Shown here: piece by piece, positions 5,201 through 42,739 of the stretch
How positions within the stretch are numbered: position 1 is the first letter of the stretch
How the letters are laid out: each line of letters opens with the position of its first letter
From: Cladochytrium replicatum
Lineage: Eukaryota; Chytridiomycota; Chytridiomycetes; Cladochytriales; Cladochytriaceae
Reading direction: 5' to 3'
Length of the DNA stretch: 64,000 nucleotides
Assembly (NCBI GenBank): GCA_025526935.1
Contig: JAHLKD010000099.1
Span: 143,089-207,088, forward strand
The notes under the pieces: generated by a model
What the model was told of the DNA's origin: nothing
The model's database searches: none
What the model saw: only the letters and a program-made list of their open reading frames with translations
Translations under genes and position numbers: made by a program

Positions 5201-5438
5201 AGCTTCTTCAAATCGAGTATTGAGGATGTTTTGCATCGCTTCTCTATCTGATAAGTATTCGCACCGATTAGCTACAGCCCGTATTAAACTTGGACAAGAA
5301 TATAACTCTACCGCGGTGTAATGCCCACAATTCCGCTCCATTGCATGGATAACCCGAGCTCTCCAGTACATTGAAGACGTCGTCGCGTACGTCTGATGGG
5401 TTGATCAGCACATCCTCGATACACCTTCCACTTGCCAT
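2222..5438 (-). CDS. SHOC1/ZIP2-like XPF-family meiotic crossover protein (probable)
   Basis: A multi-exon gene. Exons seen from the 3' end: 2222-2365 (after an intron ending at CTTCTTCAG), about 2450-2525, 2580-2730, 2783-3241, 3238-4071, plus likely N-terminal exons at 4264-4605 and 5153-5438. The C-terminal half looks like a catalytically dead XPF/ERCC4-type nuclease fold (DVILSGRTALLFFPLA, then LLRICIRYKHMWVVF) followed by a helix-hairpin-helix pair (LPCLNIFHASAILSVFGS). The active-site ERK..D motif is absent. That architecture is known in SHOC1/ZIP2, which with SPO16 stabilises meiotic recombination intermediates. The first ATG (5438) and the 5' exon joins are uncertain. FAAP24 or another inactive XPF paralogue is the alternative, but the long N-terminal part favours SHOC1. 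Confidence 0.5.
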
Positions 5439-5520
5439 TTTTGGGAATGTTTGGGAGCCGTGTGGCGTTACTCCATAATTTGAATAATGGAATGAATAAT
5501 AAGCAGGAACGGTCGCTACA

Positions 5521-6397
5521 ACGCGAAATTGCTGGATAAAGAAGGAAATCAAGGACATTGAAAAGGATCTTGAGAAGTGCCTGCAGCTGCTGACGAACCG
5601 GGAGCCCAAGCGGTGAAGTCAGGCGGTGCACTCAGGCTCAAACCCTGGTGAGCAGGACTCCAGTCTGGATTGTGGGCAGCGCAGCATTCTCATCAATGGA
5701 TTGATAGAAGATTTAGAAGCGCCCCAATGGTGTGGTCCAATATAGGCGGACGCCAGGTATTTCGATTGGGATGAAAGGTTGAAACGGGGGGGAAGCGATC
5801 TGGATCCGGCAAAATGGTTCTAACATTTAGGTTCAGGTTGCGATCACTAACCAACAGCTTCTGGATCCAGTTATCAAAGAGCTACCGCTTCCAAAACTCA
5901 AGAAAAATGGCTTCATCTTTATCTGGGTGATAACCAACAAGTACTTAAAGGCGTCTGAGTTGATGGAGAGGTGGGGCTACACGTCTGTACAATATCAACA
6001 CATGTTCGCAATCATGATCAACAAGAATATTGCAGATACGTGGACGATTTTACGTGGGTGAAGCAACCGGTCAACCGTCGGCTGGCGAAAGGACATGGAT
6101 ACTATTTGCAGCATGCAAAGAAACGTGCCTCGGACTAAAAGGAAAAGAACCAGTCCGAAACGATGGAGAGGACACAGCACCTTTGTTAGCATATCATCTG
6201 ACCTGATCTTCTCCGAATGGCGAATGGGAGGAAGAACTTTACGAGATGATCGAGGAATTAGTCCCAAAAGGTGAGCAAGAAGTCTCAATGAGACGATCTC
6301 AGGAAACTGAATGATCACGAAAGGGATATACTTGGATGTATTCGGTCGTAAGAACAACCTGCGGAACTTTACGGTGACCATTGGAAACGAGCTTTGA
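5521..6397 (+). pseudogene. MT-A70 N6-adenine methyltransferase remnant (MTA1-like)
   Basis: Decayed coding sequence of the METTL3/METTL14/MTA1 family. In order: a coiled-coil segment (KEIKDIEKDLEKCLQLL, about 5535-5590), APQW (5716-5730), ADARYFDW (5746-5769), LPLPKLKKNGFIFIWV (about 5881-5930), ELMERWGY, a small intron, then YVDDFTWVKQPVNRR and HGYYLQHAK, SSDLIFSE, EELYEMIEELVPK, another intron, and GRKNNLRNFTVTIGNEL ending in a TGA at 6395. The block order and the ending match MTA1-type DNA 6mA methyltransferases. It needs three frame changes (about 6119, 6181 and 6228), and a stop separates APQW from ADARYFDW. At the place of the catalytic DPPW it reads D-P-A-K-W (5803-5817). It lies head-to-head with the SHOC1-like gene. 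Either a dead gene or a locus with several assembly indels. Confidence 0.7.
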
Positions 6398-6488
6398 GGA
6401 TTCATTGTGGGCATCGATCACCTGCAAATCGAAAGTCGGCAAGAAAAAACAAACAAGTGGACTAAATCCACACACAAGCAATGGGTTC

Positions 6489-7562
6489 TCAACGGAGCCT
6501 GACTGGCTCGAGCATTGATCGAAGTTGGGCGACAACTTTATCCACATCGGAATCCTTGGAGGCAGGGCGGATCGCAATGGCGTTACGAGCCATCAAGTCC
6601 AACCACTCCCCTCTGACGTGACCGTCTGACGATTCATGCCTTGAACTATCAGGGATGGTCCAATTGACCACGCTTCCTCCGGCCTCACGAACGATTAAGG
6701 AGGCTGCAGCGATATCCCAGATGTAGAATCCTGTTTCCCAATAGACATCCACAGATCCTCTTGCAACCATGCACATGTTCAACCCCGCCGTCCCGAGGGA
6801 CCGTATCCCTCGGAGACCTTCCGACCCCGACAGGGTGCGTCTTATTGTGGTTAGTTTTGACTCGAGGGTGGGGTCGGACAGATCGGAACCGTACTCTGTT
6901 GCACCTAGCAGAGTCGATAAGTTGGAACCCAGCGGGCGGGGAGGTTGCTGTAAGGGAAGCCTCTGGTAGCTCGCATCGATCGTTGAAGGGTGGTCGGGAA
7001 GTGACGTATTGTTGTAAAACGCGCCTTTGCCTTTCACCGCTGCAACAGTGCGCTTGTTAATGTGATCTCTTCCATTATTTGCGAATTGCTCACCATAGAA
7101 GCAATCATTCAAGATAGGGTTGTAAACAACACCAACCATGACTTCCTTGTTGAGGATGAGCGCAATGCAAGTACACACCAACGGTAGACCATGCACAAAA
7201 TTGGTTGTTCCATCGATAGGATCAACGCACTGCAACGCAAGCAGTCAATCGAAATGCTTCAGAAAAAGTATATCGAGTCCTCACCCAAGTCCAATCGTCC
7301 GTTAAAGCTTCCTTTGTCACACCAATGGATTCTTCACCAAGAAACTTGTGCGAAGGGTAGTTACGCACAAGTGTCTCGTGGATATGCTCCTGAACCTTTT
7401 TGTCCGTTATCGTCACCAAGTCTGCGTGATTCTCCTGTTTCGTGTCGATGTTTGTAGAGTCGTATGCATTCCGACTGTTAGCGTAGAATGCTTCTCTGAT
7501 GATGGTCCCAGCGCTCCGTGCGACAGCCAGTGCTGTGTCAGGTACGGCGTGAGATCGTCCAT
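6489..7562 (-). CDS. Inositol monophosphatase
   Basis: Cytosolic Mg-dependent phosphatase releasing myo-inositol from inositol phosphates for phosphatidylinositol synthesis. All family metal-site motifs are present in order: GEESIG, DPIDGTTNFVHG and WDIAAASLIVREAGG near the C-terminus. An intron with GTGAGG and a TTGCAG acceptor lies between GEESIG and DPIDGT. The N-terminal exon encodes AVARSAGTIIREAFY and KQENHADLVTITDKK, typical of IMPases. The likely ATG at 7562 (MDDLTPYLT) is one base out of frame with AVARSAG: CTGACACAGCACTGGCT appears to lack one nucleotide. This is either an assembly indel or a recent mutation. Total length about 300 aa, normal for the family. Confidence 0.9.
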
Positions 7563-7612
7563 CGCACGTGGCGATTCGGTCATAAATACACCATCAAAAT
7601 CTCTTGGAGTGT

Positions 7613-8651
7613 ATGAAGACAAATTGGGGGAGAACGGCCGACGTTGTTCATTTCACTGCTCTCGCTCTCGCTCTTGCTAAACGCTCTGGTTTTGTACTAA
7701 GTCGCATCCCATCGTCTGGAACCCTGTATCTCTTGCTGCTTTTCGACACGCTCAAACGTCTGCTCTCACACTCGTCCCGGACACTTCGCAACCTGGCCAC
7801 AGTTCTGGGTCCCAGGAGCATCGCTCTTGCTCTTCTGTTCATACCTGCATCAGCTCTATTCCTAAGTTTCTCGCGTAAGAAGGCGTCCGCAAAGCGTCCG
7901 CTTCCAACTCAGGTAATTTTGCAGGAAGAAGGAAGGAAGGAGGTGAAAGCACTGACACATCTTGTACTTGTAGAACAAAGAAGTCAGTCAACCCGAAGAG
8001 CCTGGTTCGACTGAATCCGTTCAAGAGAAGTGTCTAGACTTGAACTCTCCTCCTCCGTTGACAAGCTCGCCCGCCAGCTCCATCATCAGCATCTCTTCAG
8101 ACACAACATTGCCAACCTCTTCATCTCCAGTCTCTAATCTCTGTTTTTTGACCGAGGAAGCGGATTTACTTGCAAATACCATTATCGACAAGCTTCAGAC
8201 CACAAAACTCACAAAGCACACACTTGCACCAACAACAATGTCCAGTTCAAATAACATCAGCTGGGAGATCAACGAGGACGCTCACCACTCCTCCGCAACC
8301 GCCCAAACTCCGCTCTGGGGTTCTTCTTTTAACCTTCCCGGTTACCACGACCGACCTTTAAGCCGTACCTCGCACTCGACCACTTCATCTCCTCCGCCAT
8401 TCGACCCTGTTCCGAACGGGGTGTACCTCTCCGGTGAAGATTTTTACGAGACGAACAGCTGCAGGTGCTCATCGAAGAGGGCGCACGTGGGGAAAGTGCA
8501 GCTGAGCGAGGAGGACTATGTAGAACGAGAGTTTGTGTTGGATCTCGCCGGCGCCTTCCATGATGAGCCGATTGGAAAGAGGAAGAAGAGCATAGTTCAG
8601 GGAGTGACCCCTGAATTTGTGGAAGTTCGAGGTGCAATCCGTAAGGCGTGA
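7613..8651 (+). CDS. Unknown membrane-anchored, Ser/Pro-rich protein
   Basis: Two exons, 7613-7912 and 7974-8651, joined across a 61-nt GT..AG intron. The joined frame reads through TQ|NKEVSQPEEPG. The N-terminal part has one strongly hydrophobic stretch (SIALALLFIPASALFLSF, about residues 75-92) followed by basic residues, consistent with a single membrane anchor. The rest is a Ser/Thr/Pro-rich linker and an acidic/basic tail. I do not recognise the family. A possible extra 3' intron (GTAAGG at about 8641 to AAATCAG at about 8697) would replace the last three residues. It is divergent from the IMPase gene, with only about 50 bp between the two starts. Confidence 0.6.
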
Positions 8652-10061
8652 AAGAAACATGTTTTCTCAATATTTTCTCCTTTGATGTAAAATCAGATAG
8701 CAGAAGAAAATACTCCTGAAACCCTGATTTCCTAGTAATGGCACTTTCCATGCAGCTCCCTGTTTGCGAGCTAAAATTGATGATGTGCTAACATCTCGCA
8801 AAATTTGCTAACTTCTCAATAAGTTGTGCAGAGCACGTTATGCCCCCATCCGCTGATTCTAGTTCAGCTAGCTCGGTCATTACAATGAGCTTCATTGAAT
8901 TAACCGTATCAGGTGTAGCTGCTCCTAGAGGCGGCCTGACCTCGATGGGTGTTCAGGACGGAAATCCATCTGAACCTCCAGACATGCCTACTGGATGGGA
9001 AGATTGAAGTCGTTCTAGCCGGGTGCAAGACGGTCTGGTTTGTATTGAAGGCTCTTTTAAGGTTGAACACTTAGATGTTCAACAAAACATTGCTAACAAC
9101 CAATGATTGTGTCAAATAATGTGGTAAATCGGCGTAATTTGACAAGGGCATACTCCGCTATTAAGTGGTTGAGTAGGGTCAATCCTGAGACTCATACATG
9201 CGTTTCAACCATTGTGATGACTTTCTCCTCCAGAGCAGCCTTGGTGGGCAATAATGGCTTACTTCTCGACTCCCTTCTTTCTTTAAGCTCCAGTGCCCTG
9301 ATTTGGTTGTTCGCCTTTGCCAGCTATACGTACTTGTCCCTTGCGTGACCATTCTACGGACCTTCTCAGTTCATCTTTGCCTTGGCGAACGGGTGATAGT
9401 AATGAGTGAGAGAACAAAAATGAATTAATAACCAATCCCCTTCAAGCGAGCTTACGGTGACAGTTAAGGGCGTGAAAGAGAGCTGCTTACAGTAGTTTGC
9501 GGTGAAGTATGTATTGAAAAGTGTTACATGCGGTTTGGAAGAGTATTCGACTCGGAATGTTTGGCGAAGGTTATTCATTGCTGTCGATTGGCACGGCCGT
9601 TTTAGGGAGGGACACGCGGCAACTCACCTTGAAAGGTTGACCTCTCAATCACCCCGAACGCCTTTGAGAGGTCAAAAGAAGTGCCAGCGCTACTCTTGAG
9701 CTTGATCCACTCCGCTTCTAAGCACTTGAACTGCTATAAGAGGGGTGAAGAAAGGACCAAAGGAGAAAACGGACGAGAGAAAGGTCAAGGGTATAAATGG
9801 GGTAGAGAATTGCACATTCCTACGCCCTCATTAAAGGGTTCAGGTTCAACGGTATGATCTCAGCCCACAGAAGAAGAGGTATATTACTCTTCCCCGGAGC
9901 ACCCGTTGTGCATAGAGAAAGGGGAAAACACTGAACTAAAAACTTTACCCATACCGTCTCCGGAGATTCCCACAAAACTCTAAAAACAGAAAACTAGTTA
10001 GACTCGCTGGGAAGATACCTCATGCTAATAAATTGAAAAGATACTCACCCCACTACCCCCA
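8652..10061. other. Intergenic, about 1.4 kb, no clear gene
   Basis: No conserved coding frame seen. The only mildly suggestive reading frame is 8840-9007 (+), 55 codons, starting MPPSADSSSASSVITMSF and ending PTGWED, with no recognisable domain. Another + frame at 9103-9348 is hydrophobic and low-complexity. The 3' end of the symporter gene and a CTCACCCC that could be a splice donor of an unseen 3' UTR exon lie at 10040-10061. Confidence 0.4.
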
Positions 10062-11725
10062 CTAGTTCGTCGAGACATGAGCCATGGTCTCCTTCATACG
10101 TATGTGCGCCTTCGGGAGCGGGTACGTCCAACCCATCGACTTGCGCACAACCATCTCTCCACCTGCATACAACGCAATTCCAACAATCGACGCAATAGGT
10201 CCCACAACGAAAGTCGGCCAGTCGTACGAAACAAAGAAAATATAGTTCAATCCGTCCGCAAGGTTGCCCATCGTGATCCAGCCGAGCCCAGAGACACCGA
10301 TAAAGCCCAAGAGAACGCCGAACAGCGCAGCGCCTTCCGACACGTATCCGTCCAAGCGCTCGGAGAGACCGCAGAGTAGAGGGATCGCGGAGATTGTGGA
10401 GAGCACGTTTCCGATCAGGAAGAGCGAGAGGACGCTGACACGCATAAGAGCCACAATAACGATGGGGATGTTGATCAGAATGACGGCGAGGCGAGACACC
10501 CAAAGCGGAAGAGTCCTGAGGAAGAGTGCGGACAAGGTGTTGGTAAGGGCCGTTTGGTATGAGTCAACGGATCCTTCGTTCATGATGACGGTGATGAGGG
10601 CTACCAGAATAACGATCCAGGTGGGAGCCGAGTCACCGCTGGTCTTCAACAAGTCGAAGAAAGCGGTGCTACCGTATGGGTCGGATTGCGGAATACCACC
10701 CCAGATAGAAAGGAACCTTGTGGAAAGTTTTAATAACGCTATCTCGGACGTCAAATATTTTGCACCTACCCTCCGAAACCAAACAAGAAGCATGTCAAAG
10801 TGATCCCAATGGCGGCAATGATTGACCCGTTCTTCAATGAGCGTTCATCAGCTGAAGCCCACACGCGTTGCCTGGGATCAACTTTAGCTTGATTCAAACG
10901 TGCGCTAAAACTTGGCACTCACCAGAAAGCTTCCGAGAAGACAGTTGCAGCTGCCAGAGAGATCGGCATGACAGCAATGGCCGCGTATCCGAGGTAGTTC
11001 GGTCCGAGAGTTGGGTTAAGCGGAGGCAGCTCGGTTGGGCGGAAAGTGACAGCAACGTAGATGTAAATGACAATGAGAAGAGCGACAGTCATAACCGCTT
11101 GAACCACATCAGTCAAGATGCTGACGTAGAGACCGCCGTAAGCCGTGTAGATCGTGGTGACGATAGCAACAACGAGGATCGGAACTTCACGCTGACCACC
11201 TAAGACGAGTTCGAACAAGTTTCCAACGGAAGTGTACTCGGCAGTGAGGCCAACGGACATGATGAAAAGCATGAGGAACGAGACGTAGAAACGCATGACA
11301 TGTCCGAAGCGCCAACGGGCAAAGTCCCCGATCGAAATGATGTAGGGGAACTTTTTCTGCACCAAAGTGCCGACGTATGCGATCATGATGATGGGCAAAC
11401 CCGAAGACAGGGCGTAGAAGACCAAACCAACAATGCCCGCAGATACAACATAAGACGGCATACTAAAGACAACCCTAATTTGCGAGATTCGAAGTCACTC
11501 GGTGCGATTAAGTCTAGGAGATGGAAGAACTCACCATGCTCCTAGGGAAGTGGCATAGAATGAACCGGCAATGTTCCATGTCGGCGACGAGGAGCGAGCT
11601 GTCAAAAAGAAGTCGACCGTGGAGGGTTTCGATTTCGACGAGTAGAAGGACAGCACCATGGCGAAAACGCCGACGGCCACAACCACAATAGTGCATACGA
11701 TGTAGGAGATAGTCGTAATGTCCAT
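10062..11725 (-). CDS. Sodium:solute symporter family permease (SSS)
   Basis: A polytopic membrane transporter of the SSS family (TC 2.A.21), which moves urea, proline, pantothenate or similar solutes with Na+ or H+. Four exons. The starts of exons 2-4 join cleanly as LGAW|VVFSMPSYVV, SEAFW|QRVWASADERS and FGFGG|FLSIWGG. Translation gives repeated hydrophobic helices such as TTISYIVCTIVVVAVGVFAM, ILVVAIVTTIYTAYGGLYVS and WIVILVALITVIMNEG. Conserved SSS features are the unwound helix region SFYATSLGAW and the AYGGLYVSILTDVVQ segment. Length is about 490 aa, within the family range. The substrate cannot be told; the fungal DUR3 urea permease group is longer, so I do not assign it. The start is the ATG at 11725, followed directly by the first helix. 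Confidence 0.85.
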
Positions 11726-12148
11726 TGCTCGCAGATCACCAGAAGAAAAGTGTGAAATTTGTTTTCGTGGCGGTGTTGAAAGCGGCTTTAAAAAGCGGGT
11801 GGCGAACGGCTCACAAGCCCCGTCGTTAGCTCGCCGGGACCACCGGGTATTTAATGTGGTGGTGTGGAGGAAGTCGGCTCGCAGGAGAGAAAACTCGGAC
11901 TGAGTTGCTTTGCTTTGAGTAATCAGAGATTGAATCCGTACTCACTGGGTCGCTTGCTTTAACACTATTTTGAGTGACGGATCAGATCCATTTCGTCTCT
12001 GAATCGTCTTAAAGATTGACAGTGTGACTTCTATCACTAATTGGGAAACGATGAAGGAGCTTTAAGCAATTCCTTCATCTTCGCACAACTTCAATATTCC
12101 ACTTCTAATTTGTGGACTGTTGCCCAACGCCACCTCCACTGCGAATGA
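11726..12148. promoter_or_regulatory. Divergent spacer between symporter and GLE1
   Basis: 423 bp separating two genes that point away from each other, so it must hold both promoters. There is no clear TATA box; an AT-rich patch lies at 11990-12120. No motif could be assigned. Confidence 0.45.
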
Positions 12149-14203
12149 ATGGATCGCTCGTTCCTCCTCAAATCTGTCGCGGTGAGCAACGGAAACTCCT
12201 TCTCTCGCCGTTTGTTGACGTTGTGCTCAGATCAAAGACCCCGTCCAAACTCTCTCAGACCAATTTCACAACCATGTCTGGGTAAGGCCTTTCATCAGAA
12301 CAACTGAATTATTATCAAACTAATCCACTTTATCTCTATCAGCAAACGGTAGCAAGAAAAACCGCGGAGCTAGAAACGTTTAACGCGCTGAAACTTTCAA
12401 ATGATTATAACAACGGGGACGACGAAGACGGGCCTTCGAATGGGCGAGGTGTACCTCCGCCCTTGTCGATGACTTCCTCCGAATTGACTAATCTCAGGAG
12501 TCTTGCGGATGGGAAGGCATTACCCAGGTTTGATTCATGTGTTTGATTTTATTGAAAGTATTTCCTGACAAAATCTACGCTAGCCAGACAAGAGCTTTGC
12601 AAACAATTGCAGCTCTACGGAACAAGAACGAACAGCTTTCACAGGTAGACTTGGAAACGTTGGATGAGTAGAAAAAAAGGTTTCTCAGCTTTTGTGCAGG
12701 ATATTGAGAAGACCATACAAATATCAAAAGAGAAAGAAGCAGATGCGAGGGAGAGGGCTCTAGAAGCGCTTCGAAAACAAGAGGAGGAGCGCAAGCGTGT
12801 AGAGGAACAGGCAAGGCTGAAACGTGAGCAGGATGACGCTGCCGCTCGGGATCGAGCGGAGACAGAACGTCGCGATGCGGAGTTGAGGGAACAAGCTGCG
12901 GATAAAGAGCGTGCGGATAGCGAAATAAGAAAGGCAGCCAAGGTACATTTACCAATTAGACTTCTTCGAATTGGCATTTGATCTGACACAAAATCTAGGC
13001 CGCTGGTTCCGTTTCACCAAAAGCCTGGGAGGCAGCGGTAACGTATGCCGAAAAGCTCAAGGTTCGACTTGAACACATCTGGGACCATTCAATGCTAATT
13101 GTGCTACTTGAATAATAGGAATACGAAGAGGTAGTCAAGCCATCACTCAAGAAGAATGAGGCCGTTATGGATTGGCTCTCGAATCGGAAACGGTTGGTCC
13201 GAAAGCGAGTCGGTCAGTTGACTGCAGAACATGAGAAAATCATGGAGATTGTAAGTAAATTGAAGAAAGAAAAGGTTTTATTGATGTCCTTCCTCTTTCG
13301 TAGTCCAACGCTTTGAGCGAGGCTCTCTCAGAAAGCAGTGGCCAAAGTGACCAACACTACATCTGGTTAATGAAGAAGGTTTCCAAGCAAATGATTGTAC
13401 GTTCTCAGACTTTCTGCAATAATTTCAGGCTCACGTATATATTTCCCAAACCAGCTTCAAGCAGAGAAAGAGGTGTCAGTCAAGATCGATATGGCTGATC
13501 CTCTTGCTACAATATGTATCACCCTCATGAAAGCACATTCTCGCTTCCTTGACTACCTCCTCGCAAGTATGCAGGAACGATGCATTTACGTTGTGCCACG
13601 TTATATCCGCCGAATCCAAGTAAGGCAAACGTGACTTGTGTGTTTTCGTGCTTCGAGCCTGAGGCATCTGATCTCAGGGCCAATCGGATTTTTCCTACTT
13701 CACATCGCTCGGATTCCACCCTCGCTATCCTTCCTGTCTCCAAAGAGGCGGTGCACCGAATGACGACGAAGACTGCGGGCACGAAGGATGTGTCCAATGG
13801 GAGGATGAAGCACGTTATCTGGAACGAATGTGCGGAATCGTCGCCTTGTATTCAGCTATCACTCATAGCTCCGTGGGTAAGTAGATCCACTTCATCCACC
13901 TATGCCACTTTCATGACAGTTTTGGCGTTCACTCTTGTAGCTGGAAACCCGCATGGGCTAAAGCATGGGTGGAGCTGGCTTGCGCGAATCTGCAATATGG
14001 ATCCCAGGAAAGCCACTCCACTTCTGGTTCGAACGTTTCTTGAAGTCTCGGGACAAACGTTGGTGCGCGTATACGGCAATCAAGGTGTCAAACTGGTGCG
14101 GTCGATATACGCTATGAAGATGCCCGCCAATTCATTCAGAGAGACATTCCGCTTGCACGAGTACTTGAAAGAAAAACTCGGAATCTTGAATAAAAACCCT
14201 TAA
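12149..14203 (+). CDS. GLE1: GLE1-like mRNA export factor
   Basis: Nuclear-pore cytoplasmic factor that, with inositol hexakisphosphate, activates the DEAD-box ATPase Dbp5 for mRNA export. About ten small exons, starting MDRSFLLKSVA|IKDPVQTL. A long charged coiled coil (ISKEKEADARERALEAL to ADKERADSEIRKAAK) is followed by the conserved helical GLE1 domain. Recognisable landmarks are MKKVSKQMI, EKEVSVKI, LATICITLMKAHSRFLDYLL, ERCIYVVPRYIRRIQ, YLERMCGIVALYSAI and GNPHGLKHGWSWLARICN. The order and spacing match GLE1. The intron after IRRIQ joins to GQSDFSYFTSLG, which sets the reading frame. The N-terminus is shorter than in animals and lacks obvious FG repeats. Confidence 0.9.
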
Positions 14204-14632
14204 AAATCTCTTGGAGATCGAAGATTAATTTCTTTACGGCACAGTAGCTGTCCAGCAGTCCGGCTGTGCGGCAAAGTCGAACGATTCGATGACAGCAGTG
14301 GGAACTCCTCTGGCAAATAAAATGTACAACTTTAGGTCTGTTCAAATTCTCTAAAAGAAAGGCGAACAAGAATAATCCTGATAGTCATCAACTGCACAGC
14401 TATTCTTCAATTTCCCTGAAAAATATAGTAAATGTTCTGTCTTTCTGACTTCCATGCTTGCCCAACAAAAAATCCCAGCCTTTCTCACCCGAACAACCCC
14501 GAGCAAAGTGAGTTACCAAATCCACCGCCGTAGCCTCACGGCATGGCAAGTGCTTGTGACCATGCTATTCTTTATCTCTCCAGTCTACCTCTGACTCTTT
14601 TCTGCCAATTTTTCCGACTCAGGTCGATCACG

Positions 14633-15099
14633 ATGACCTTCTGGAAAGATGCCGGTTTCAGGTGAGGGACGGTGGGAGGTTTGTGGAGCCGGAGAGCATC
14701 TTTCAAAGGCGTTCGGTATGGGGATATGTATCATTTTGCCGAGAGCACTCTCTGGATGTGACGACGGGCGCTCCTTGCAATTACTCACGTATTCCGCGAA
14801 AACACATCCCCTTTCAACGTAACTTCACTCGGTGTGCGAATGCGATACTCACTACTTATCTTTCAGCTACCTGAAGTACGTTCAGGTCGCCTCGCGTGCT
14901 CTCCGTAGCGTGTTGAAGGAGGAGGCAAAGGTTCAGGCATTGAAGCGAGAAGACACTGTTCTTAAAGTTTCCCGCTGGGCTAACGGGAAGCAGGGTGAAC
15001 TGGTTAGTCTGCCCATATCGAATGAATATGTAGTGGCTCAATTCATTCATTCACTTTCGTTTTTCTAAGAAATTTGTCGACCCAAAGAACCAGCATTGA
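14633..15099 (+). CDS. ATP15: Mitochondrial ATP synthase subunit epsilon
   Basis: Small subunit of the F1 central stalk in the mitochondrial F1Fo ATP synthase. Three exons: 14633-14661, 14867-15002 and 15070-15099, giving exactly 64 aa, the usual size (yeast 62). The protein begins MTFWKDAGFSYLKYVQVASR, the family signature, followed by ALRSVLKEEAK and WANGKQGEL and ending KFVDPKNQH. As in other species there is no cleaved presequence. The tiny exons explain why no long open frame marks it. It converges on DRE2 with 131 bp between stop codons. Confidence 0.92.
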
Positions 15100-15230
15100 T
15101 CACTGTCGATATGTTCCAGAAACCTTGATATTAGAGATACTTTTGGGCGGGAGGAGGGCAATATACGATGCCAACATTCTTTTGCAAATGAAGTGACAGC
15201 ATTGATCAGATGTATTATTATTCAGGACAA

Positions 15231-16473
15231 CTACACAGTCAGATCGTCCTTAAGATTAAGGGTAACCATTTCGCCTGGCTGGAATGCGGGCATACCCAAA
15301 TACGGGCAGCTGGAGCAGCGGAACGCATCGCCGAGATAGCACTGCGATCGCAAAATTTAAGCAGAGCGAAAAGTCTGGGCACCTTAAAAACTTACGTTGC
15401 CACAGGACGATTGGACGGCAGGAACCGCCTTTGTAGCAACCTTTTGCTTCTTGGCTGCCTTTTCTTCTTCCTTGCGAGCTTCATCCTCGGTTTCCATTTC
15501 TGCCAACCCGCAGGAGCAGTTCTTGCAGGCCTTCTTCTTTCCGGCAGTACCATCGGTTGGCCCGCAATCTGTAAGTTCACATGAGAAACCAAGATTCGCA
15601 ACCAGATCACGAACACACCTGCAAGGTCTGGTTTCAAGTAATCGTCCGCATCGATGAGGTCATCCTCATTCACAAGGTCTTCGTCGTCATCATCATTAGC
15701 GGAAACTTTCCATACTGCCACTTTCGCTGGCGCTTTTGCACCAATGAAGTATTCAAATAGAGATTTTATCCAAACGGATCAAAAGATAAGTTGATACATA
15801 CCAACTTTGATCCGACTAGTCTCTTCCTTGGCTGGTGTAGATTTCTTAAACTTGAGCGGGAGTGCAGCGCTGGCACCAGTCTCGTAGCTGGGTTTCTTCG
15901 CCACAACCTCGACCACGGCAACTTTCCCAGCCCATGTCGTTGCATTGACAGCTTCGGCCAAGGGCGAATTTGGCGTAGCTGCCCACACCTTCAATTCAAC
16001 AGTGTCGACAACCCGCAGCGACAGAGCCGCCAAATCAATGAACCCGTTCAAAGTCAAGTCACGGAACAGAGTCGATGTTGTGCGGAGTGGAGAAAGAGCA
16101 GCGTCCTCAACAAGGGCGATAGGTTCAGTCAGGTGCAGACTGCCATTCGGTTGCAATGCAGTAGCGAACTGGCCGAGGGCTGAGACTGTGTGCGTAAAAC
16201 ACGCAGGACCAGTTGCTCCAGAAACGATCTTCTTGTAATGGGATGTAGGGAGTGACACTACAAGAATGGCATTACACCAATGAGATTGTGGAACTGGAGA
16301 CGAGCTAGTTCAGACAAACCCATACACATGGACAGTCGGTCGAGCTGTTCAAACGACACTTTCGCTGCATCACCTGCTTCAGAAGCAAGGCGCTCACGTT
16401 GAGCAACAACATCCGCGGCCTTCGCGGCAGGAGTCCCCACGAGCAGGAAGGATGGCAGTTGGGCAGCAGGCAT
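15231..16473 (-). CDS. DRE2: DRE2/CIAPIN1 (anamorsin) Fe-S assembly protein
   Basis: Electron-transfer scaffold of the cytosolic iron-sulphur assembly machinery, reduced by the diflavin reductase Tah18. Domains: an N-terminal degenerate methyltransferase-like region (from [13 protein letters not shown]), an acidic linker ending [15 protein letters not shown], then two cysteine motifs. Motif A is C-x12-C-x2-C-x-C ([11 protein letters not shown]) and motif B is C-x2-C-x7-C-x2-C ([15 protein letters not shown]), followed by [12 protein letters not shown]. All eight cluster cysteines are intact. The introns before DCGPTDG and before motif B follow GT..AG. It lies just downstream of ERB1 on the same strand, 112 bp away. 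Confidence 0.93.
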
Positions 16474-16585
16474 TAATTATTAAATTGATAATTGGAGGGT
16501 TGCAGGTGTGGCGAATGAGTGTGGGAACTTATGTGACTAATCCATCGAGATGGGAAATGCCAGGAGACACGTTATTGTTTATTTC

Positions 16586-19403
16586 CTATGTGTACAGCTT
16601 GATCGTTGTGTCGGCACCAGAGCTAATTAGCCACGGCTGCGTTGGATGGAACTCGCATTGAAGTGCACCTGCAAAAGGTTGGTCAGAACGATCTCAAAAG
16701 ATAACCACATGCACAAACCTAAGCTGTCGACCACTGAGTGGCCATGAATTCGTTTCACAGGAACAATCAATGGTTGTCGCATCAAGTCATTGTATACCAT
16801 TCCGTGGAACACGTTGACGTCTCCGTCATCACCAACACTTGCGAACAACGGGTACCGCTTGTGGAATCGGACACTTCTAATAGCCTCTTTGTGGTACCGT
16901 AGAGTCTTGAATGGCTTGGTTGAGAGGTCCAAGTCAAACCAGGCAAGTCGCCTATCGTAACTCCCGACAATTACGTTATCACCTGTTGTGCGGGTTGTGA
17001 GCCAACAATAACACTAGTGCTGAAATTATATACCTTCGGGATGTACATCGATGCTCGATATCCACTTCATTCCAGTGATCAACGTTTTTGCCAGTTCTTG
17101 CTTGAGGAGATTGTAAACCAACACATATCGCTGAGTCTACAACCAATCCGAATCAGCAAATAGTGCTCGACAAACAACTTCGCATGACCACCTACCGCAA
17201 CAAACAAGAACGGCTTTGATGGATGGAAAAGAACACACTGTACCATGCCTTTGGACTTTCTGAACGGAGACTGCGATTGCCTCTTTGAAATCTGATGAAT
17301 CTTCACAGCACCTTGTCCAGCTGAAACAGCGACGGTTTAGCCTTTTCTATTGGTGGCGCTGGGTTTGCACATACCTTCTGGCGACACTGTAACCAAGTAA
17401 TCGCCTCGCCGATGCCACGAGATATGGGTTATTGGCTGGATTTCACTGTCACTAACATATTATCCATATGTAGTGTAAACAATTTACCTTTTCGTGTGCA
17501 ATTTTCATGAGTTCCACCGTCTTCTGTTTCCCGGACTGTTCAACAGACACCCATTCGCAAGCAGAAACTCCTATGAATTCCATATTAACATGTAGCGGTC
17601 GATTGAATTTGAAGCTTACTCTCTGAAGCAGAAGGAATGGCACGCACGAATTCTTCTGTTGCCCTTCGAATGCTGGAATTGCCAATCTTTGGAGAACAGA
17701 GGAAGAGTGTTTCCCCACTATATACACATCGATAAGCCTTCGAAACCTTAAGTACGCTGAAGCAGCTCACCTCGCCACTGCAAGCAGAGCGTGGTCTTTG
17801 TTGGGGCTCCACGCAACCTGCATAACAGCCTTCGATCCCAACTCGAGCCTCTCCAGGCAACGGCCAGTAAGCACTTCCCAAATACGGACGGTTGAGTCCT
17901 CGGACCCTGAGTCATTGTTATTTGCATTCTTTAATCCTTGGAGTCAAGCGTACCAGACGCAAGCCATTGTCCGTTAGGATGCACCGAGATGCTTCGAACT
18001 CTGCCTGTGTGGCCAAGGTAGACCACTGCCTCTCGCTGAGGGAAAGGCCGAAGCTCGTTGGGATCCGGAAGTTTCGGAAGAAGCTTCTCAACATCTGTGT
18101 GAATCTGCAATGGCGATCAGTATATAATGGTAATGAACTGAATGGCTCACGTACCTTTTTGGCTTGGACTCGGGGGCAGAGGTACAAATCAAGGCACCGC
18201 TCAAATCGCTCCTGAATGAAGCGATTGTACGCTGGGACTTTGCGAAGGCTCGAATACCTGAAAGATATGGTTGGCAAATTGTATCATGTCCCAAACCTAA
18301 ATTCATACTTTTGAGGAATGAAGTTGCGCTCGCGATCTTCAGGATGAGCTTCATTCCAGCCTTTCTTCTCCTCCTCGGACATAAGATATTCCGCCGGAGG
18401 ATTGTATGACGCATAGTGATCCGGAAGCGGCATCTTTGTCGCGGGCAAATGACGGAAGCGCTTATCTTCTCCAGCAGTGTCTCCTTCCCCAGACCATATA
18501 TCATACAAAGCTGGCGTCTGAGCATCATCTAACCTCGGCCGTAGCCGACCTGCTCGGATCGCTCGTACGATTTTCATGATCTAAAGTTTTGTTCGGATTA
18601 TATCAAGAGGTAATAGGCTTGCCCGGCTACCTTCTTTGCTTCCCATTTCGATGCTACGAATCGTCGTTTAGGCTCGGGAGCAGCGCTGAGTGGAGTTACC
18701 GACGTTTTGCTTGTAAACCATTCAATTGTGGGCTATTCGCCATAAAGCACAGGTTAGTAACCCCATTTTACGCGAAAACAATCACGAATCTTACTGCGTA
18801 AGGATCCATATCCAGCCCGAACTTCTGGTCCTGAATGCGTTTCAGCAACTCCAGTTCGTCCTTGCTAAGCGCAACTGTCGTTCCTGTACGCTTATCGTAA
18901 ACAGATCTCCTTCAAGTCGAATCAATCCATTTCAGATCTGGCACATTCCAAAAGTGTGAATTACTCACAGAAGTGTCGGATCATCGAGCTTGGCCAGTAG
19001 AGAATCCAGTTTATCCCCTTGCGCAGGTTTCATGATCATCTTCCCATGAATGTCGTACCCAATGTGGGGCAAATCATCGTACCACTCGATTGGAACATTT
19101 CCGATCGTATTTTCTGTCTCCTGTTCGGAAGAATCAACGACTGCATTAAGCCTTCATAATTCCTTATATTGTATATCACGTTCTCTGTACCTCATCTGAA
19201 GTGTCGCTGTCGTAGATGGGGTCGATTTCGGGCCTTTGCATGCCCTCATCTGAATCCGCATTCTGTGGTCCCCATGCATCCGGGTCCATAAGCTCTCCAG
19301 CAAAAATTTCATCTATTTTCACGGGGGTTTTTTCTGAAGGGGCAGGCACTTCCTTGCTGGACAGATCCTGCTCCAGGTCCACAGCAGCCTTCCGTTTGCC
19401 CAT
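16586..19403 (-). CDS. ERB1: ERB1/BOP1 ribosome biogenesis WD-repeat protein
   Basis: Member of the PeBoW (Nop7-Erb1-Ytm1) complex needed for 27S rRNA processing and 60S assembly in the nucleolus. The N-terminus [12 protein letters not shown] is followed by an acidic stretch ([13 protein letters not shown]) and the BOP1NT signature ([20 protein letters not shown]). The C-terminal half is a WD40 propeller with blades such as [30 protein letters not shown] and [20 protein letters not shown]. The protein ends [15 protein letters not shown]. Many short exons. The start ATG at 19403 fits the conserved basic N-terminus. Length about 740 aa, as expected. Confidence 0.93.
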
Positions 19404-19967
19404 TGAACAAAAGCTGTCAAAAACTGGTGTGGCGCAATGTAGGGAATTGTTTTTACTCCAGCAAAAGCAAATGGATCACAGAATAACATTCAACAATTGG
19501 CAAGAATCCACTTGGCTCTGTCGCAACCCAATTTAGCTCCGGATAAAGTCTGAAATTGGTATTATCGCCTCCAAACACAATATCGGGTGACATCTTCAAC
19601 GGTTTGGAAGTAAGCGATTGTGTTGAATGGAAACTTTACCTTATACAATGTCGTCGTCGGAATCAAACAAGCTCACAGAGACTTTGGGAGAGCCATGAAT
19701 TTCTCTAATATGGAACCAATGTTTCTGAGGACTTGAACAACAATATTATCAGCATTCATGATCGTGTCCAAATAGACCAACAAGTTTGCAGTTTGGCTGA
19801 GCGAATTGATCAACAAAAGAGTCGACCTAATCACAAATGAACAACTATTTACCTGCAATATTCCAGGACGCTGGACAACAACGCTCATTTTTGCATCAAG
19901 CAAACATAACCAACGTGGGAGTTATATTTATCGTAGCATTGCATACTCCGCTGGAGAAGCCATGGAG

Positions 19968-20460
19968 ACGTCAGGTACGAGTTCGTGGCCCTGCAGCACT
20001 CAACCGACGATCAACCACAGAGAAACTACCGACTCTGCCTGCTGCAGCAACCAAAGAAGTCCAGGATGTATGGGTTGGCCGAGAAAAGGTGGGGCGGTGT
20101 GGTAGACACATACTTATTCTGGAACTCTCCATTTGATCGTCGTCCAGTGGACCCACCACCCATCATCGTAAGCCTCTTCATTCAGCTCATTGGATCACAC
20201 TTTCTGAAGAAATTTTGCTTATTGGAATAGCTACTCGAATTTACTAATGGCCAGTCTTCGTTTGGAGAGCTCTTATTACTTTCTATACGCGTTATTGATC
20301 GTACCACACTCTGAGGACGAGTTGCACTTCCTCCAGGATGGAAAAACTCTCTCAAAGACTGGCGTGATGGTGTCGAGCTTATATCCCCTCCATATGTGAT
20401 CTGAGATCAGGGAATACAAAGAATGCCCTTCCTTTTAATCAATACATTTAAGCCTATACA
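19968..20460 (+). pseudogene. Velvet-domain factor, partial and probably broken
   Basis: Velvet regulators couple fungal development and secondary metabolism through an NF-kB-like DNA-binding fold. Signature pieces here are YRLCLLQQPKKSRMYGLAEK, then DRRPVDPPPII, then an intron-like gap (20168-20230) and SSYYFLYALLIVPHSEDE, LHFLQDGKTLSKTG and MVSSLYPL. A 16-residue insertion separates the two halves of the core AEK..DRRPVDPPP signature. The frame after the gap does not join in phase with any AG acceptor I could find. No C-terminal velvet strand is visible, because the sequence runs into minisatellite units at 20615. I call it a damaged gene; a mis-assembled intact one remains possible. Confidence 0.55.
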
Positions 20461-20614
20461 ACTGAAGGTAGGCATCAACTCGTGTGTTTCAAATCGTTGA
20501 CTGTGAATTTCTCAGTTTTCGTTATACAAAGTTGTCAGCAGCTAGATTTACTTTTGCACCTACATCATCTTCGATGTTTTCTGTACGTGGCGGCACATTC
20601 AGGTCACTCCACCA

Positions 20615-20815
20615 TTTGTCATCAAGTATAACTAACCTCTCTATCAATACTACAAGCAATGGATTCTGTCACACAGACACTTTCTCAACTCCTTGACAGT
20701 GCTTCAGTGATCTCTGTCAAAAACATCTCACCTCTCTACAAATGCTACTAGCAACAGAATTCTGTCCCCGAAGACACTTTCTCAACTCCTGGACAGTACT
20801 TCAACTGATGAACAC
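20615..20815. repeat. Minisatellite units related to the 49-50 kb array
   Basis: Two diverged copies of the roughly 97-bp unit found at 49.3-50.4 kb, recognised by ACACTTTCTCAACTC.TTGACAGT, CAGTGATCTCT and ACCTCTCTA.AAATGCTACTAGCAA. They sit about 100 bp beyond the 3' end of the hAT transposase relic. Confidence 0.75.
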
Positions 20816-20919
20816 TCAAAACAACAATTTATATTTAAAGGACTGGTTTGTTATCAGTTGCTTCCAATGCTAAGACCACATCAAAATCCCCGTCAAAATT
20901 GTGCACCTTCGCAAAATCC

Positions 20920-21309
20920 TCACAATTTTGAATCCTTCAAATCATTTTTGAACGGTTCTTCAGCACTCAATTGATACAGCCAGTCATGACAGCACATCAA
21001 CACATTTATTGTTCTTGGAGCAAGGTGATTGCGAGTTGCAGGTACCAAATCATCCCCGGCTGAAAACTTTCGTTTGACTGGAACACTTGTTGCTGGTATT
21101 CCTAAATAGTCCATTGCTATCTGGCTCAGGGCTGGAAGGTTCACACTTCCAACAGTCTTCGACCAGTCCATAATATGACAGTTTCCCATCGGGATCAATA
21201 CTGCGGAGTACCTGATTGCTAAGACAGTGATCCAGTTCATCTTTTTCCTCGGTAATCTCTTCTTGTCAGTTGAAATGGATCTAATGGCACTCAAACGTTC
21301 AGAGTCCAT
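20920..21309 (-). mobile_element. hAT transposase, C-terminal dimerisation region (relic)
   Basis: Reading frame with the hAT C-terminal block: LPALSQIAMDYLGIPATS, then KRKFSAGDDLV and RNHLAPRTINVLMCCHDWL. These correspond to the conserved YL.IPATS...R.FS..........L.P......++....WL pattern. Just upstream a DELDHCLSNQVL segment lies in a different frame, so at least one frameshift is present. A 33-nt poly-C tract interrupts the upstream sequence. It is the 3' end of a decayed Ac-like element; the inverted ends were not found. Confidence 0.8.
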
Positions 21310-21414
21310 TGTTTTCTGTCTATCACCAGAAGGTCTGCTGGAATCATGTCAACAATCTAGTGTGTTTCTATTACCATCGGCACTAGTGTTCTTGTTTTTC
21401 TGTGTCTTATACAA

Positions 21415-21415
<1 letters not shown>

Positions 21416-21448
<33 letters not shown>
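21416..21448. repeat. Poly-C tract, 33 nt
   Basis: Uninterrupted run of 33 C inside the hAT relic. Length in the real genome is likely variable, and the assembled length is unreliable. Confidence 0.95.
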
Positions 21449-21450
<2 letters not shown>

Positions 21451-21556
21451 ATTTTCCGCATGATGGTGACCTGAGCCCAACCTACATCTTTCTCCCATGC
21501 CTTCAAAAATCAATAATATTGGCCCTTAAAGCAAGGATCAAGTACTGTAGCAACCA

Positions 21557-21900
21557 CTAAACACAGGCTCTTTGCGGCTGGGCAATATGCTTGCAGGTTG
21601 TATATGCATTTTGAAATGCTTTGCCGAAAGTTTCATCCAATTCTGCCTGCTCTAGGTCCTCCAGGTGATCAATTAGATTGTTGTACATTGGACTAACAAG
21701 CGGAAGTGTTGGATATCTAGACCCCTCAATTGCCTTTGCAATTATAAACATTGCTTATTGACGTGTATCAGGATTCTTTGAAAGATTGGTTCAACAAATG
21801 GAAAGCAATGTGACGTCCTCCAGAAGAAATCTAGACCCCTCAATTGCCTTTGATATAACCTCAAAAACACTCAAACCATCCCGGATCTTCTGTAGGACGT
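21557..21900 (-). mobile_element. hAT transposase, internal fragment (relic)
   Basis: Minus-strand frame with AKAIEGSRYPTLPLVSPMY and NNLIDHLEDLEQAELDE, typical of the region of hAT transposases before the C-terminal domain. The piece FE.ISKAIEGSR is encoded twice (at 21717-21738 and 21831-21852) because of a local duplication linked with the palindrome. Clearly inactive. Confidence 0.7.
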
Positions 21901-21966
21901 CACATTGCTTTCCATTTGTTGAACCAATCTTTCAAAGAATCCTGATACACGTCAATAAGCAATGTT
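21747..21966. repeat. 80-bp inverted repeat with 60-nt spacer
   Basis: The left arm 21747-21826 and right arm 21887-21966 are reverse complements over 80 nt with one mismatch seen. A 22-nt direct repeat (21717-21738 and 21831-21852, starting CTAGACCCCTCAATTGCC) overlaps the structure. It lies inside the hAT relic. Confidence 0.9.
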
Positions 21967-22437
21967 CATGATTGCAAAGTTCAGAGAACATTCAAATTAT
22001 AAAACTAGGCATTCTGTTAAACAATGTGCTTAACTAGTGGAGTGAAACAGAAGAGCTTCTGCAACATATTGCGAGTATAGTCAATAATACGACCAATGCT
22101 AAGCTGTAAAAACCAAGCTACATGAAACAAAAGTTAATTTCTTTGCTTTAAGAGCAGCCTGAGTTGTCCACGTGTGCAGCCACCACCCGAAGTGTTTCTG
22201 AGGTGCGAATCGGAATCGTCGTGCTGAGTGACATATCCACTGGCTACGACTGGTGAGAATGGCAAAATAAAACCCTTGACAGCAGGCTAACGTTGATTGT
22301 GGTTGGGAACAGCCTGAGATTCTTTTGTTGTTGTAATCTTACCACTTCTACGGTCATCCCAACTCATTTGTGGAGGTCGGTTTAATTCGTGTAATACCTG
22401 CATTATCAATATTTCTGACGTTGTGGGATGCTAGAAA
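21967..22437. other. Spacer upstream of SCD6/LSM14
   Basis: About 470 bp of AT-rich sequence between the hAT palindrome and the LSM14-like gene. No coding frame. It must hold the promoter of the downstream gene; no motif assigned. Confidence 0.4.
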
Positions 22438-24013
22438 ATGTCGAATCCGCTTCAGACTTATCTAGGGCTCAAACTTTCGCTGATCTCCAAGTCAGGATGT
22501 CGGTACGTCGGAATCTTGCATTCGATCAGCCAGGAAGATGCGACAGTGTCGCTGAGAGAAGGTACTCCGCTTTTTTAATACTTCTCTTGTTTCTGAACAT
22601 GAACACTCGATCGTAGTCACTTCCATGGGAACTGAAAATCGCCCAGCCCCACAGTTCATTCCGGCGGCCCCTCAGGTGTTCGACTTCATTGTCTTCAAGG
22701 GATCCGATGTGCAGGATCTTAGCGTTATGAATGAGCAACCAGCTCCCCCTCCTGTAAGCCAGCTTCCGAACGACCCAGCAATAATGCACGCCGTAAGTAC
22801 GTGTTCTTTCGGAGAGGTCGTGGGCTGATTGTTCCTTTTTTGCAAGGGTGGACAACCTCATTCACAGGGATATGGTGGAATGCCCCCTCCGGGTCCTGGA
22901 GGGATGCCTCCTATGATGCAGCCTCCGCCGTACATGATGGGTTACCCTCAGCAGCAAGCCCCGCCGTGGGCCCATCAACCTTCAGGTCCCGGTCCAGCTG
23001 CACCGATATCTTCTGATCATCCCGAGACTGCTGGCTCGAATTCCACTGCTCCACAGCAGGGGAAGGTTCCTACTAACGCCCAGTCGTCCCCAACAAAGCC
23101 ATCGGCAACCGAAGCACCCGTACTGAACCAAAGGAAACCTGATGAAAAGTCGATTAACTCCAATCAGCAACCGAGGAAACGACTTGATGGAGATGCGGAA
23201 ACTGAACAAAGTCATGGCGGACCTGACAACAGTGGTGGTAAAGCGAAAGGAAAGGCTGAACTCACCTATGCTCAAGTTGGGGCTCGGAAGGGTAGAGTTG
23301 AGCTCCTTGAGACCTTCATGCGTTTATTCTTATTCATTTTAAATTAGCTGAAGGAGAAAACGGCGGCTATCGCGGAGGCTTTCACCATCGGGGCCGAGGC
23401 GGATATCGCGGTGGTCACGGAGGGAACCGTGGTGGACACATGCGCAACTTAGGACCTCGTAATCGAGTAGCAGTCCCGGATTCTGATTTCGACTTTGAAA
23501 CTGCGAACGCGAAGTTTAACAAAATGGACTTGGCAAAGGAGAAAGACGGGGACAAAGATGATCACTCTCGAGAAGAAGAGAGCAATGTATCTCCCGAGAA
23601 GGTACAAGTTAACGGCGACGATGACGACGAATTGGGACTGTTCTATAACAAGACCAAAAGCTTCTTCGACAACATTTCTTGTGAAACTAAAGAACGGTCC
23701 GAATCTTCTGGCGAAAGGTAGAGTGGCTAGCTTTCGTGTTGCTGCTAGTAACTGAATCTTTTTAAGGGTCAACCGCAGAGCCCGACAGTACGAAGAGCGG
23801 CGCTTAAACTTGGAAACATTCGGTCAGATGGGAGTTGATGGCCGCGGATACCGTCGTGGTGGCCCCAGGGGAGCTTACACAGGCGGTCGGGGATTTGGGG
23901 GAGGATACAACAACGCTGGAGGTGGTCGTCATGGGGGATATCGTTCAAACTATTCGGGCTTCAATAACCGGAATAACGGACAATCAACTTCGGCCAAAAA
24001 TGGAGGAGATTGA
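22438..24013 (+). CDS. SCD6: SCD6/LSM14 (RAP55) P-body translational repressor
   Basis: RNA-binding protein of P-bodies that represses translation initiation by binding eIF4G and promotes decapping. Exons start at ATG 22438 (MSNPLQTYLG). The LSm14 domain contains LSLISKSGCRYVGILHSI and, after the first intron, TSMGTENRP and FDFIVFKGSDVQDL. A proline/glutamine-rich linker follows, then an RGG stretch (GGYRGGFHHRGRGGYRGG), the FDF box (DSDFDFETANAKFNK), the FFD box (YNKTKSFFDNIS), the TFG box (RRLNLETFG) and a C-terminal RGG tail. All hallmark motifs are present in the right order. At least four short introns; the one after VGARK uses a TTAG acceptor at about 23347. Confidence 0.95.
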
Positions 24014-25929: not shown

Positions 25930-26660
25930 TTTTTCAAAGTATGAGCCTGATCTAGTTGATGATGAGGATGATTCTGGTCAGAAGATACAATCGGAACATC
26001 ATTACCTGAGAACAATACAGAACTTACTTGCTGAGATGAGAGAAATCATTAAAATGGATGTAACTCACGATTACACTCCTTGAGATTCACATCAAATCAA
26101 ACGCAAAGCCATGCGAGAAAAGCCAAAAAAGCAACCAAAAGCTCATGCTCATGAGGTTTGCGTTTTGCATCCCAACTCTTCTCATTCTTCTGCAGAGTGT
26201 GAACAGCTCAAACATTTGATTGAGAAACATTCTTCCTCACATAAAGAAATTGCCAACAGTAAGACTGCAAATACTCGTGCCGCATCAAATCTAAGGATGC
26301 GACGAACGACAAATTCGTGGCAAATCTAGCCAAACTCAGAATCTCTGCAGGAAGCGCAAACTTGCCAAAAGTTTGAATGATGAGGAATGGAAACAGATAA
26401 AGGCATCTCTCCTACATCCCAGAACATGGGTGTCGATTCTCAGGAATCAGAGCCTTCGCAGCTCGGGAGGTGCTTTTCTCAGAGTCTGCAGTTTTACTTC
26501 GTGGAACGGGTTACTAACATAACTAACCCTATTGTTAACAACCATAATTTAGGTATGCGCTTAACTCAACAACCCAGTGAGCGTCCTTTAACTGATGCAG
26601 TTTGTGACGATCATTTAGCTACATTTCCATTGATCCAAATACAGGAATACTGACATACAA
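25930..26660 (+). mobile_element. Degenerate Ty1/copia gag remnant
   Basis: The frame at 26111-26329 contains VCVLHPNSSHSSAECEQLK, matching the motif ICTLHPNSSHTNAQC just before the CCHC knuckle of the full copia gag at about 59.2 kb. Flanking sequence is acidic/basic and interrupted by stops. No LTR is visible nearby. It represents an older, diverged relative of the copia elements at the right end of the window. Confidence 0.6.
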
Positions 26661-26760
26661 AACATAAGTCCGTGAAACATTAAACGGCAAAAACGCAGGC
26701 AGCCTTCGTATGAAAAGTTCATCAGTTGTCATCAAATCAGCCCATTATCAGTCACCCCCA

Positions 26761-42674: not shown

Positions 42675-42739
42675 ATCTGATCCAGTCGTGATTCGCGTCG
42701 AACGTCCAACGCGACACCTTAGTCACGTGTAATCAGATC

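What the first reader, a model, noticed from the sequence alone, without database searches (positions are those of the whole stretch)
5521..6397. Broken MTA1-like N6-adenine methyltransferase gene
The block order (APQW, ADARYFDW, FIFIWV, ERWGY, HAK, SSDLIFSE, LVPK, GRKNNLRN, TIGNEL) is that of MTA1-type MT-A70 enzymes, which are linked with DNA 6mA in ciliates and early-diverging fungi. Here the frame changes three times and the DPPW catalytic position reads D-P-A-K-W. If real, this lineage has lost one 6mA writer copy or kept it only as a relic. An alternative is an inactive partner subunit (MTA9/METTL14 type) plus assembly errors.
Basis: partly seen in the sequence, partly recalled or inferred. 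Interest (0 to 1): 0.75.

Follow-up and report, generated by a model that had tools for sequence, protein, structure and literature searches.

The report
Dead duplicate of an MTA1 methyltransferase gene
The window holds a real but dead copy of a gene for an enzyme that marks DNA by adding methyl groups to adenine; an intact twin survives on another contig of the same genome, so this looks like ordinary loss of a spare copy after a large duplication rather than loss of the enzyme.

Summary
The relic is real. Window 5478-6397 (+) is a decayed, intron-bearing copy of an MTA1/AMT1-type MT-A70 gene. The same 50.5-Mb genome holds an intact twin on contig C120 (278 aa, DPPW present; best solved relative is MTA1). 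Both copies sit beside the same inositol-phosphatase gene in a block colinear, with gaps, over about 44 kb. In the 12 longest open exon pairs dS is 0.60-1.03. The start and frame are also lost and there is an in-frame TAG. Pairwise dN/dS is still 0.17, so the window copy was probably constrained for most of its history; all 15 polarisable amino-acid differences lie on the window side. METTL3- and METTL4-type genes have eroded second copies beside duplicated sequence on other contigs, which suggests a genome-scale duplication followed by loss; single MCM genes and an unduplicated METTL14 flank count against a simple doubling. An MTA9-like gene is present. The 6mA writer is probably kept, as one copy.

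The parts
5478..6397 (+). Whole MTA1 relic (unprocessed, intron-bearing pseudogene)
   Evidence: Alignment to the intact C120 gene, 79972-81020
5478..5647 (+). Exon 1 remnant: N-terminal region; the position of the start codon of my C120 model is not ATG here; small frameshifting gaps
5711..5790 (+). Exon 2 remnant (APQW, ADARYFDW) with in-frame TAG at 5743-5745
5783..5784 (+). Junction of a deletion of about 120 bp (C120 80265-80384) that removed the segment with FDVILMDPPWQLASHAPT
5791..5836 (+). Remnant of intron 2; holds the DPAKW reading (5803-5817)
5837..5982 (+). Exon 3 remnant (FIFIWV, ERWGY), uninterrupted
   Evidence: It lies in the stretch that hits PF05063 at 2.3e-7 and 7f4r at 3e-8; alignment
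5983..6035 (+). Intron 3, GT...AG, same place as in the intact copy
6036..6270 (+). Exon 4 remnant (HAK, SSDLIFSE, LVPK) with four small gaps, three of them frameshifting
6271..6323 (+). Intron 4, GT...AG
6324..6397 (+). Exon 5 remnant (GRKNNLRN, TIGNEL, stop)
6489..7593 (-). Neighbour: inositol-monophosphatase family gene, readable as open (with introns) in window and on C120
   Evidence: PF00459 E 6.9e-45 for 6489-7244; alignment and frames
5299..48924 (.). Block colinear, with gaps, with C120:79.8-121.8 kb; window 22.4-25.9 kb matches C120:122-133 kb in inverted order
   Evidence: exon pairs

Best explanation
The feature is an unprocessed pseudogene of MTA1 (AMT1), the catalytic MT-A70 subunit of the symmetric DNA 6mA writer. 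A genome-scale duplication (whole-genome duplication or hybridisation; inferred) gave this probably flagellate fungus two MTA1 copies. Both were probably constrained for most of the time since. The window copy then lost its catalytic segment to a deletion and gathered a stop, frameshifting gaps and changes at conserved sites, while the C120 copy stayed intact and presumably supplies the enzyme, perhaps with the MTA9-like partner from C159. Shown: homology, synteny, lesions, intact twin, one-sided decay. Inferred: the origin of the duplication, the timing, and that C120 is expressed and active.
For: Intact twin: C120:79972-81020, five exons, 278 codons plus stop, GT-AG introns, DPPW; MTA1 chain 7f4r 246 bits against METTL3 116, METTL14 66, MTA9 35. 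Shared neighbour and about 44 kb of gapped colinearity. Lesions; longest open stretch on the relic's own strand 76 codons. Relic v intact: dN 0.148, dS 0.878, ratio 0.169; differences by codon position 37/28/82, uneven at p 4e-8. Of 149 comparable residues from the end of exon 2 to exon 5, 28 differ: 15 where C120 agrees with the outgroup MTA1, 0 where the window does, 13 neither (sign test p 6e-5, or 12:0 p 5e-4 without three beside a deletion). In the block, 12 of 15 listed exon-pair alignments of 150 codons or more hold no stop, with dS 0.60-1.03 and dN/dS 0.035-0.252. Second copies elsewhere: METTL3 flank C33 -> C17, with three METTL3 fragments left and the core gone; METTL4 flank C4 -> C1, with one METTL4 fragment of about 90 bp found; C99 left flank -> C62. 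MTA9-like gene on C159.
Against: The eight MCM loci found have different exon patterns and look like single-copy genes, and the METTL14 flank has no second copy, so a whole-genome event is not proved and would need much loss. Many lesions together with a low pairwise dN/dS is a slight tension, eased if decay began in the last 3-25% of the branch (depends on the assumed constraint). The genome-wide PF05063 search did not list the relic itself. The polarising alignment was made with the C120 protein as query and one distant outgroup, which may lean towards C120. No reads, expression data or relatives' genomes were available.
Confidence: 0.9

Rival explanations
1. The window and C120 are divergent haplotypes (or parental genomes of a recent hybrid) both kept in the assembly, so the relic is a null allele rather than a duplicate gene.
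For: Colinearity with partner contigs; on C1 and C4 the METTL4-flank pair and a pair of chitin-synthase family matches lie about 339 and 345 kb apart (the chitin-synthase matches were not compared with each other).
Against: dS of 0.60-1.03 in the 12 longest open pairs is far beyond ordinary alleles (the comparison with alleles is general knowledge); eight MCM loci look single; the METTL3 and METTL4 second copies are deeply eroded.
Confidence: 0.13
2. Sequencing or assembly errors over a working MTA1 gene.
For: Two of the single-base gaps lie in short A runs (my reading).
Against: A loss of about 120 bp, one of 11 bp, a stop and a lost start are not typical base-calling errors; the adjoining phosphatase and the dynamin gene can be read as open in both copies; changes at polarisable sites fall on the window side 15:0.
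Confidence: 0.03
3. An inactive partner subunit of MTA9 or METTL14 type.
For: No catalytic motif in the relic.
Against: Closest to MTA1; no open frame over 76 codons on its strand; separate METTL14-like (C108) and MTA9-like (C159) genes.
Confidence: 0.02
4. The dead copy still acts as RNA, for example a transcript that regulates the intact MTA1 by sequence match.
For: Introns 3 and 4 and exon 3 are well kept; nothing here excludes transcription.
Against: No positive evidence; the third-position bias shows past coding constraint.
Confidence: 0.04

Closest known systems
MTA1/AMT1 of ciliates; Mta1 of Mucor and Rhizopus microsporus
   Same: The C120 twin has the MT-A70 domain, DPPW and the conserved C-terminal blocks; 246 bits to the MTA1 chain 7f4r (that 7f4r is from Tetrahymena is recalled). 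The window copy keeps most non-catalytic blocks.
   Different: The window copy lacks the catalytic segment, a start and an open frame. The fungal proteins themselves were not compared, only read about.
Duplicated (unprocessed) pseudogenes left by gene loss after duplication
   Same: Introns kept, synteny kept, intact twin, one-sided decay.
   Different: Nothing in kind; the gene concerned is a DNA 6mA writer.
MTA9 / AMT6-7 non-catalytic partner
   Same: Same superfamily, no DPPW.
   Different: The relic is closer to MTA1; a separate MTA9-like gene with DPPL lies on C159.

Membership tests
MTA1/AMT1 (functional writer) | MT-A70 domain (PF05063) | tested here: met
   C120 twin E 1.2e-40 over the whole domain; window stretch 5831-6058 alone 2.3e-7; six other relic fragments no match
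MTA1/AMT1 (functional writer) | DPPW catalytic motif | tested here: not met
   Window copy: segment deleted. C120 twin: present
MTA1/AMT1 (functional writer) | Open reading frame after splicing | tested here: not met
   Window copy: in-frame TAG, seven of nine exon gaps not multiples of three, no ATG at the start position. C120: open over 278 codons
MTA1/AMT1 lineage | Closer to MTA1 than to METTL3, METTL14, METTL4, MTA9 | tested here: met
   C120: 246 v 116, 66, 30, 35 bits. Window piece: 36.8 v 21.5 (METTL3), 15.7 (MTA9). No tree was built
MTA1 complex | MTA9-type partner in the genome | tested here: inconclusive
   C159 gene with DPPL hits MTA1 (4.9e-6) somewhat better than MTA9 (1.5e-4); PF05063 19.1 bits, below its cut-off of 23.9
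MTA1 complex | P1 DNA-binding subunit | not tested
MTA1 complex | Symmetric 6mA at ApT | not testable with these tools
   Needs long reads
Unprocessed pseudogene | Introns and synteny kept, intact paralogue, disabling lesions | tested here: met
Unprocessed pseudogene | Relaxed constraint on the dead copy | tested here: met
   15:0 polarised changes, 12:0 without three beside a deletion; one outgroup only
Unprocessed pseudogene | No functional product | not testable with these tools
   Needs RNA and protein data

The most novel reading that the evidence does not exclude
After a genome-scale duplication or hybridisation in a flagellate fungus, the MT-A70 genes that were duplicated (MTA1, METTL3, METTL4) were each driven back to one copy while neighbouring sequence stayed double, with the DNA 6mA writer the last of the three to go. 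That would mean that adenine methyltransferases, like the MCM genes, do not tolerate two copies, and that a double dose of the 6mA writer persisted for a long time before being resolved.
Probability: 0.25. Interest if true: 0.5.

Novelty: new member of a known kind. Interest (0 to 1): 0.33.

Why it matters
The window alone suggests a lineage that lost a 6mA writer; the whole genome says that one intact copy remains. The case warns against calling loss from one locus. It also offers a natural series of decay in one gene family: an MTA1 copy still readable, METTL3 and METTL4 second copies nearly gone, neighbouring sequence kept double. The discussion of PMC12695648 (passage seen) says that MT-A70 families stayed relatively static in eukaryotes; transient duplication followed by loss would be compatible with that.

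Tried and rejected
Rejected: DPAKW as an altered catalytic site (disfavoured, not excluded: a tie at the lowest gap penalty). Rejected: reciprocal loss in the block, i.e. that C120 had lost the phosphatase or the dynamin; I read both as open with introns in both copies (no gene prediction was run). Rejected: MTA9 identity for the relic. Not settled: whole-genome duplication v hybrid v several segments; the eight MCM loci look single (loci could not be fetched, so this rests on their exon patterns) and METTL14's flank has no partner. The organism was not identified: seven matches to the chitin-synthase N-terminal family PF08407, none in 14 control genomes, and IFT57 matches on C97 over the cut-off (three archaeal controls rang below it) suggest a flagellate, chytrid-like fungus; that these families mark fungi and cilia is recalled. 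No tree was built; the collections on offer hold no eukaryotes apart from the window's own genome, and I ran no scan of the viral, prokaryote, phage or plasmid collections. No structure was predicted. Literature: (MT-A70, 6mA, pseudogene, duplication) listed one paper, a Pythium genome, of which only the listing was seen; one search listed two papers, of which passages were read; others (15 of 29 listed; 15 of 21; 10 of 550) on genome duplication in chytrids listed no title about a chytrid genome duplication; one search listed six papers on MTA1, MTA9 and 6mA, of which passages of three were read. So absence in print is only as good as these listings.

Full report
What is there. With the pieces between them they run through frames 0-1-0-2-1-2-1, so there are six frame changes, not three. 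The longest open stretch over the relic on its own strand is 76 codons (5831-6058). It hits PF05063 at E 2.3e-7 and, among solved structures, an MTA1 chain first (7f4r, E 3e-8, 36.8 bits), with METTL3 at 21.5 bits and MTA9 at 15.7. The tool calls 7f4r an 'MT-a70 family protein'; that it is MTA1 of Tetrahymena is recalled, supported by its pairing with chains named MTA9 in entries 7f4s and 7yi8. The nine proteins were this stretch, six other relic fragments (no match in any), the neighbouring gene (PF00459) and the C120 protein.

An intact twin. The window is contig C99:143089-207088 of a 50.5-Mb assembly in 198 contigs. PF05063 finds five matches in four loci (C33, C4, C108 twice, C120); the window relic itself is not among them. 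A 50-residue piece of the relic finds C120 at 82% identity over 49 residues, and the intact C120 protein finds four pieces of the relic. On C120 the gene has five exons with GT-AG introns, 278 codons and a stop, and DPPW; the exon model and the choice of start are mine. Its best solved relatives are MTA1 chains (246 bits), well ahead of METTL3 (116), METTL14 (66), MTA9 (35) and 'Methyltransferase-like protein 2' (30; a METTL4-type protein of Arabidopsis, recalled).

How the window copy is broken. Aligned to C120, 224 codons (the stop included) have a full counterpart, 44 are missing and 11 are partial. A deletion of about 120 bp removed the end of exon 2 with the catalytic motif. Exon 2 also carries an in-frame TAG (5743-5745). 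The start position no longer reads ATG. Of nine gaps in exons, seven are not multiples of three; one of these, at the end of exon 1, is uncertain in the alignment. Introns 3 and 4 keep GT and AG at the same places, which accounts for two of the frame changes. The D-P-A-K-W reading (5803-5817) aligns best with intron 2 of the twin. When forced onto DPPW the alignment scored lower at three of four gap settings and equal at the one with the lowest gap-opening penalty, so I call the intron reading favoured.

History of the two copies. The block around the gene, window 5.3-48.9 kb, is colinear, with gaps, with C120:79.8-121.8 kb, and has one inverted and displaced part. One search aligned window ORFs to C120 (E up to 1e-6; alignments overlapping a better one by over 30% were dropped, and antisense readings were not removed). 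Of the 15 listed alignments of at least 150 codons, 12 hold no stop, with dS 0.60-1.03 and dN/dS 0.035-0.252. Of the three that hold stops, the dynamin pair was read in detail, and its out-of-frame gaps lie at or outside the exon edges as I read them; the other two (window 27161-27919 and 41997-42602) were not resolved. The adjoining inositol phosphatase can be read as open in both copies. The relic shows dN 0.148, dS 0.878, ratio 0.169 (exons 3-5: 0.161; exon 1: 0.24; exon 2 saturated), with differences by codon position of 37, 28 and 82. So it was under coding constraint for most of its history. Of 28 amino-acid differences at 149 comparable positions from the end of exon 2 to exon 5, 15 can be polarised by the outgroup MTA1, and all 15 are changes on the window side. 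Three of these lie beside a deletion and may be alignment effects; without them the split is 12:0. The outgroup alignment was made with the C120 protein as query, which may favour C120. Under an assumed dN/dS of 0.05-0.15 for a working copy, decay fills some 3-25% of one branch; this is a rough estimate.

Scale of the duplication. Five flanks were searched as DNA (with 52, 41, 42); four have a partner. The flank of METTL3 (C33; identity) has a second copy on C17 in which METTL3 is reduced to three short fragments; 848 bases of the intact locus between the second and third are 35 there, and no match to the METTL3 core was found in the 1,500 bases fetched. That the first two fragments are the METTL3 zinc-finger region is recalled; the third is the MT-A70 C-terminus (compare, C33:313471-313533). 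The flank of METTL4 (C4) has a second copy on C1 with one METTL4 fragment of about 90 bp found in the 1,500 bases fetched. The left flank of C99 pairs with C62. On C1 and C4, chitin-synthase family matches lie about 339 and 345 kb from the METTL4-flank pair, so those contigs may be colinear on a large scale; the chitin-synthase matches were not compared with each other. Against a simple genome doubling, the METTL14 flank (C108) has no second copy, and the eight MCM loci show different exon patterns, as expected of single genes. I read this as an old genome-scale duplication or hybridisation with uneven loss; hybrid, whole-genome and multi-segment origins are not separated.

Is the writer lost? 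Probably not. C120 MTA1 is intact and agrees with the outgroup at the 15 polarisable sites where the window copy differs. C159 has an MTA9-like gene with DPPL instead of DPPW. It hits MTA1 (4.9e-6) somewhat better than MTA9 (1.5e-4) among solved structures and falls below the PF05063 cut-off. Its assignment to MTA9 is an inference, helped by METTL14 being accounted for on C108. P1 was not searched.

Comparison with print. [quoted passage not shown] Passages of PMC11258239 say that Mucor has putative homologues of mta1, mta9 and p1, that only the allele with DPPW restored growth, and that chytrids mostly have low 6mA, with exceptions. Passages of PMC13297926 review Mta1, Mta9 and P1 in Rhizopus microsporus. 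The searches named in Tried and rejected listed no paper whose title or abstract start reports an MTA1 pseudogene in a flagellate fungus.

Verdict. The strange elements (changed catalytic site, lost writer) mostly dissolve: the site is deleted, part of the frame trouble is introns, and an intact copy exists. What remains is a clean case of a dying duplicate of a 6mA writer, in a genome where second copies of METTL3 and METTL4 have died too.

Noticed in passing
C159:12108-12329 (-), L044: MTA9-like MT-A70 gene with DPPL in place of DPPW; not listed by the PF05063 genome search at 0.001 but found with the MTA1 protein.
   Followed up: partly
L048 (C17:523401-524900), bases 281-601: Eroded second copy of METTL3: three fragments, methyltransferase core gone, near duplicated sequence.
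   Followed up: yes
L049 (C1:1311401-1312900): Eroded second copy of METTL4: one fragment of about 90 bp beside duplicated sequence.
   Followed up: yes
window 50540-64000: Nested retrotransposon-like sequence up to the contig end, with many copies on C120, most at over 90% identity; that it is Copia-type is my reading of the polyprotein, no family search was run.
   Followed up: no
window 49255-50345: Array of repeats of roughly 95-97 bases, with similar stretches at several places on C120.
   Followed up: no
window 22353-25940: Part of the duplicated block that lies inverted and displaced at C120:121.9-132.7 kb.
   Followed up: no
window 7026-7140: In the phosphatase gene the C120 copy seems to need an intron where the window copy can be read straight through.
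   Followed up: no
C99:113-142 kb (L030, L032): Left of the window the duplicate partner of C99 is C62, not C120, so the partner region is split over two contigs or was rearranged.
   Followed up: partly
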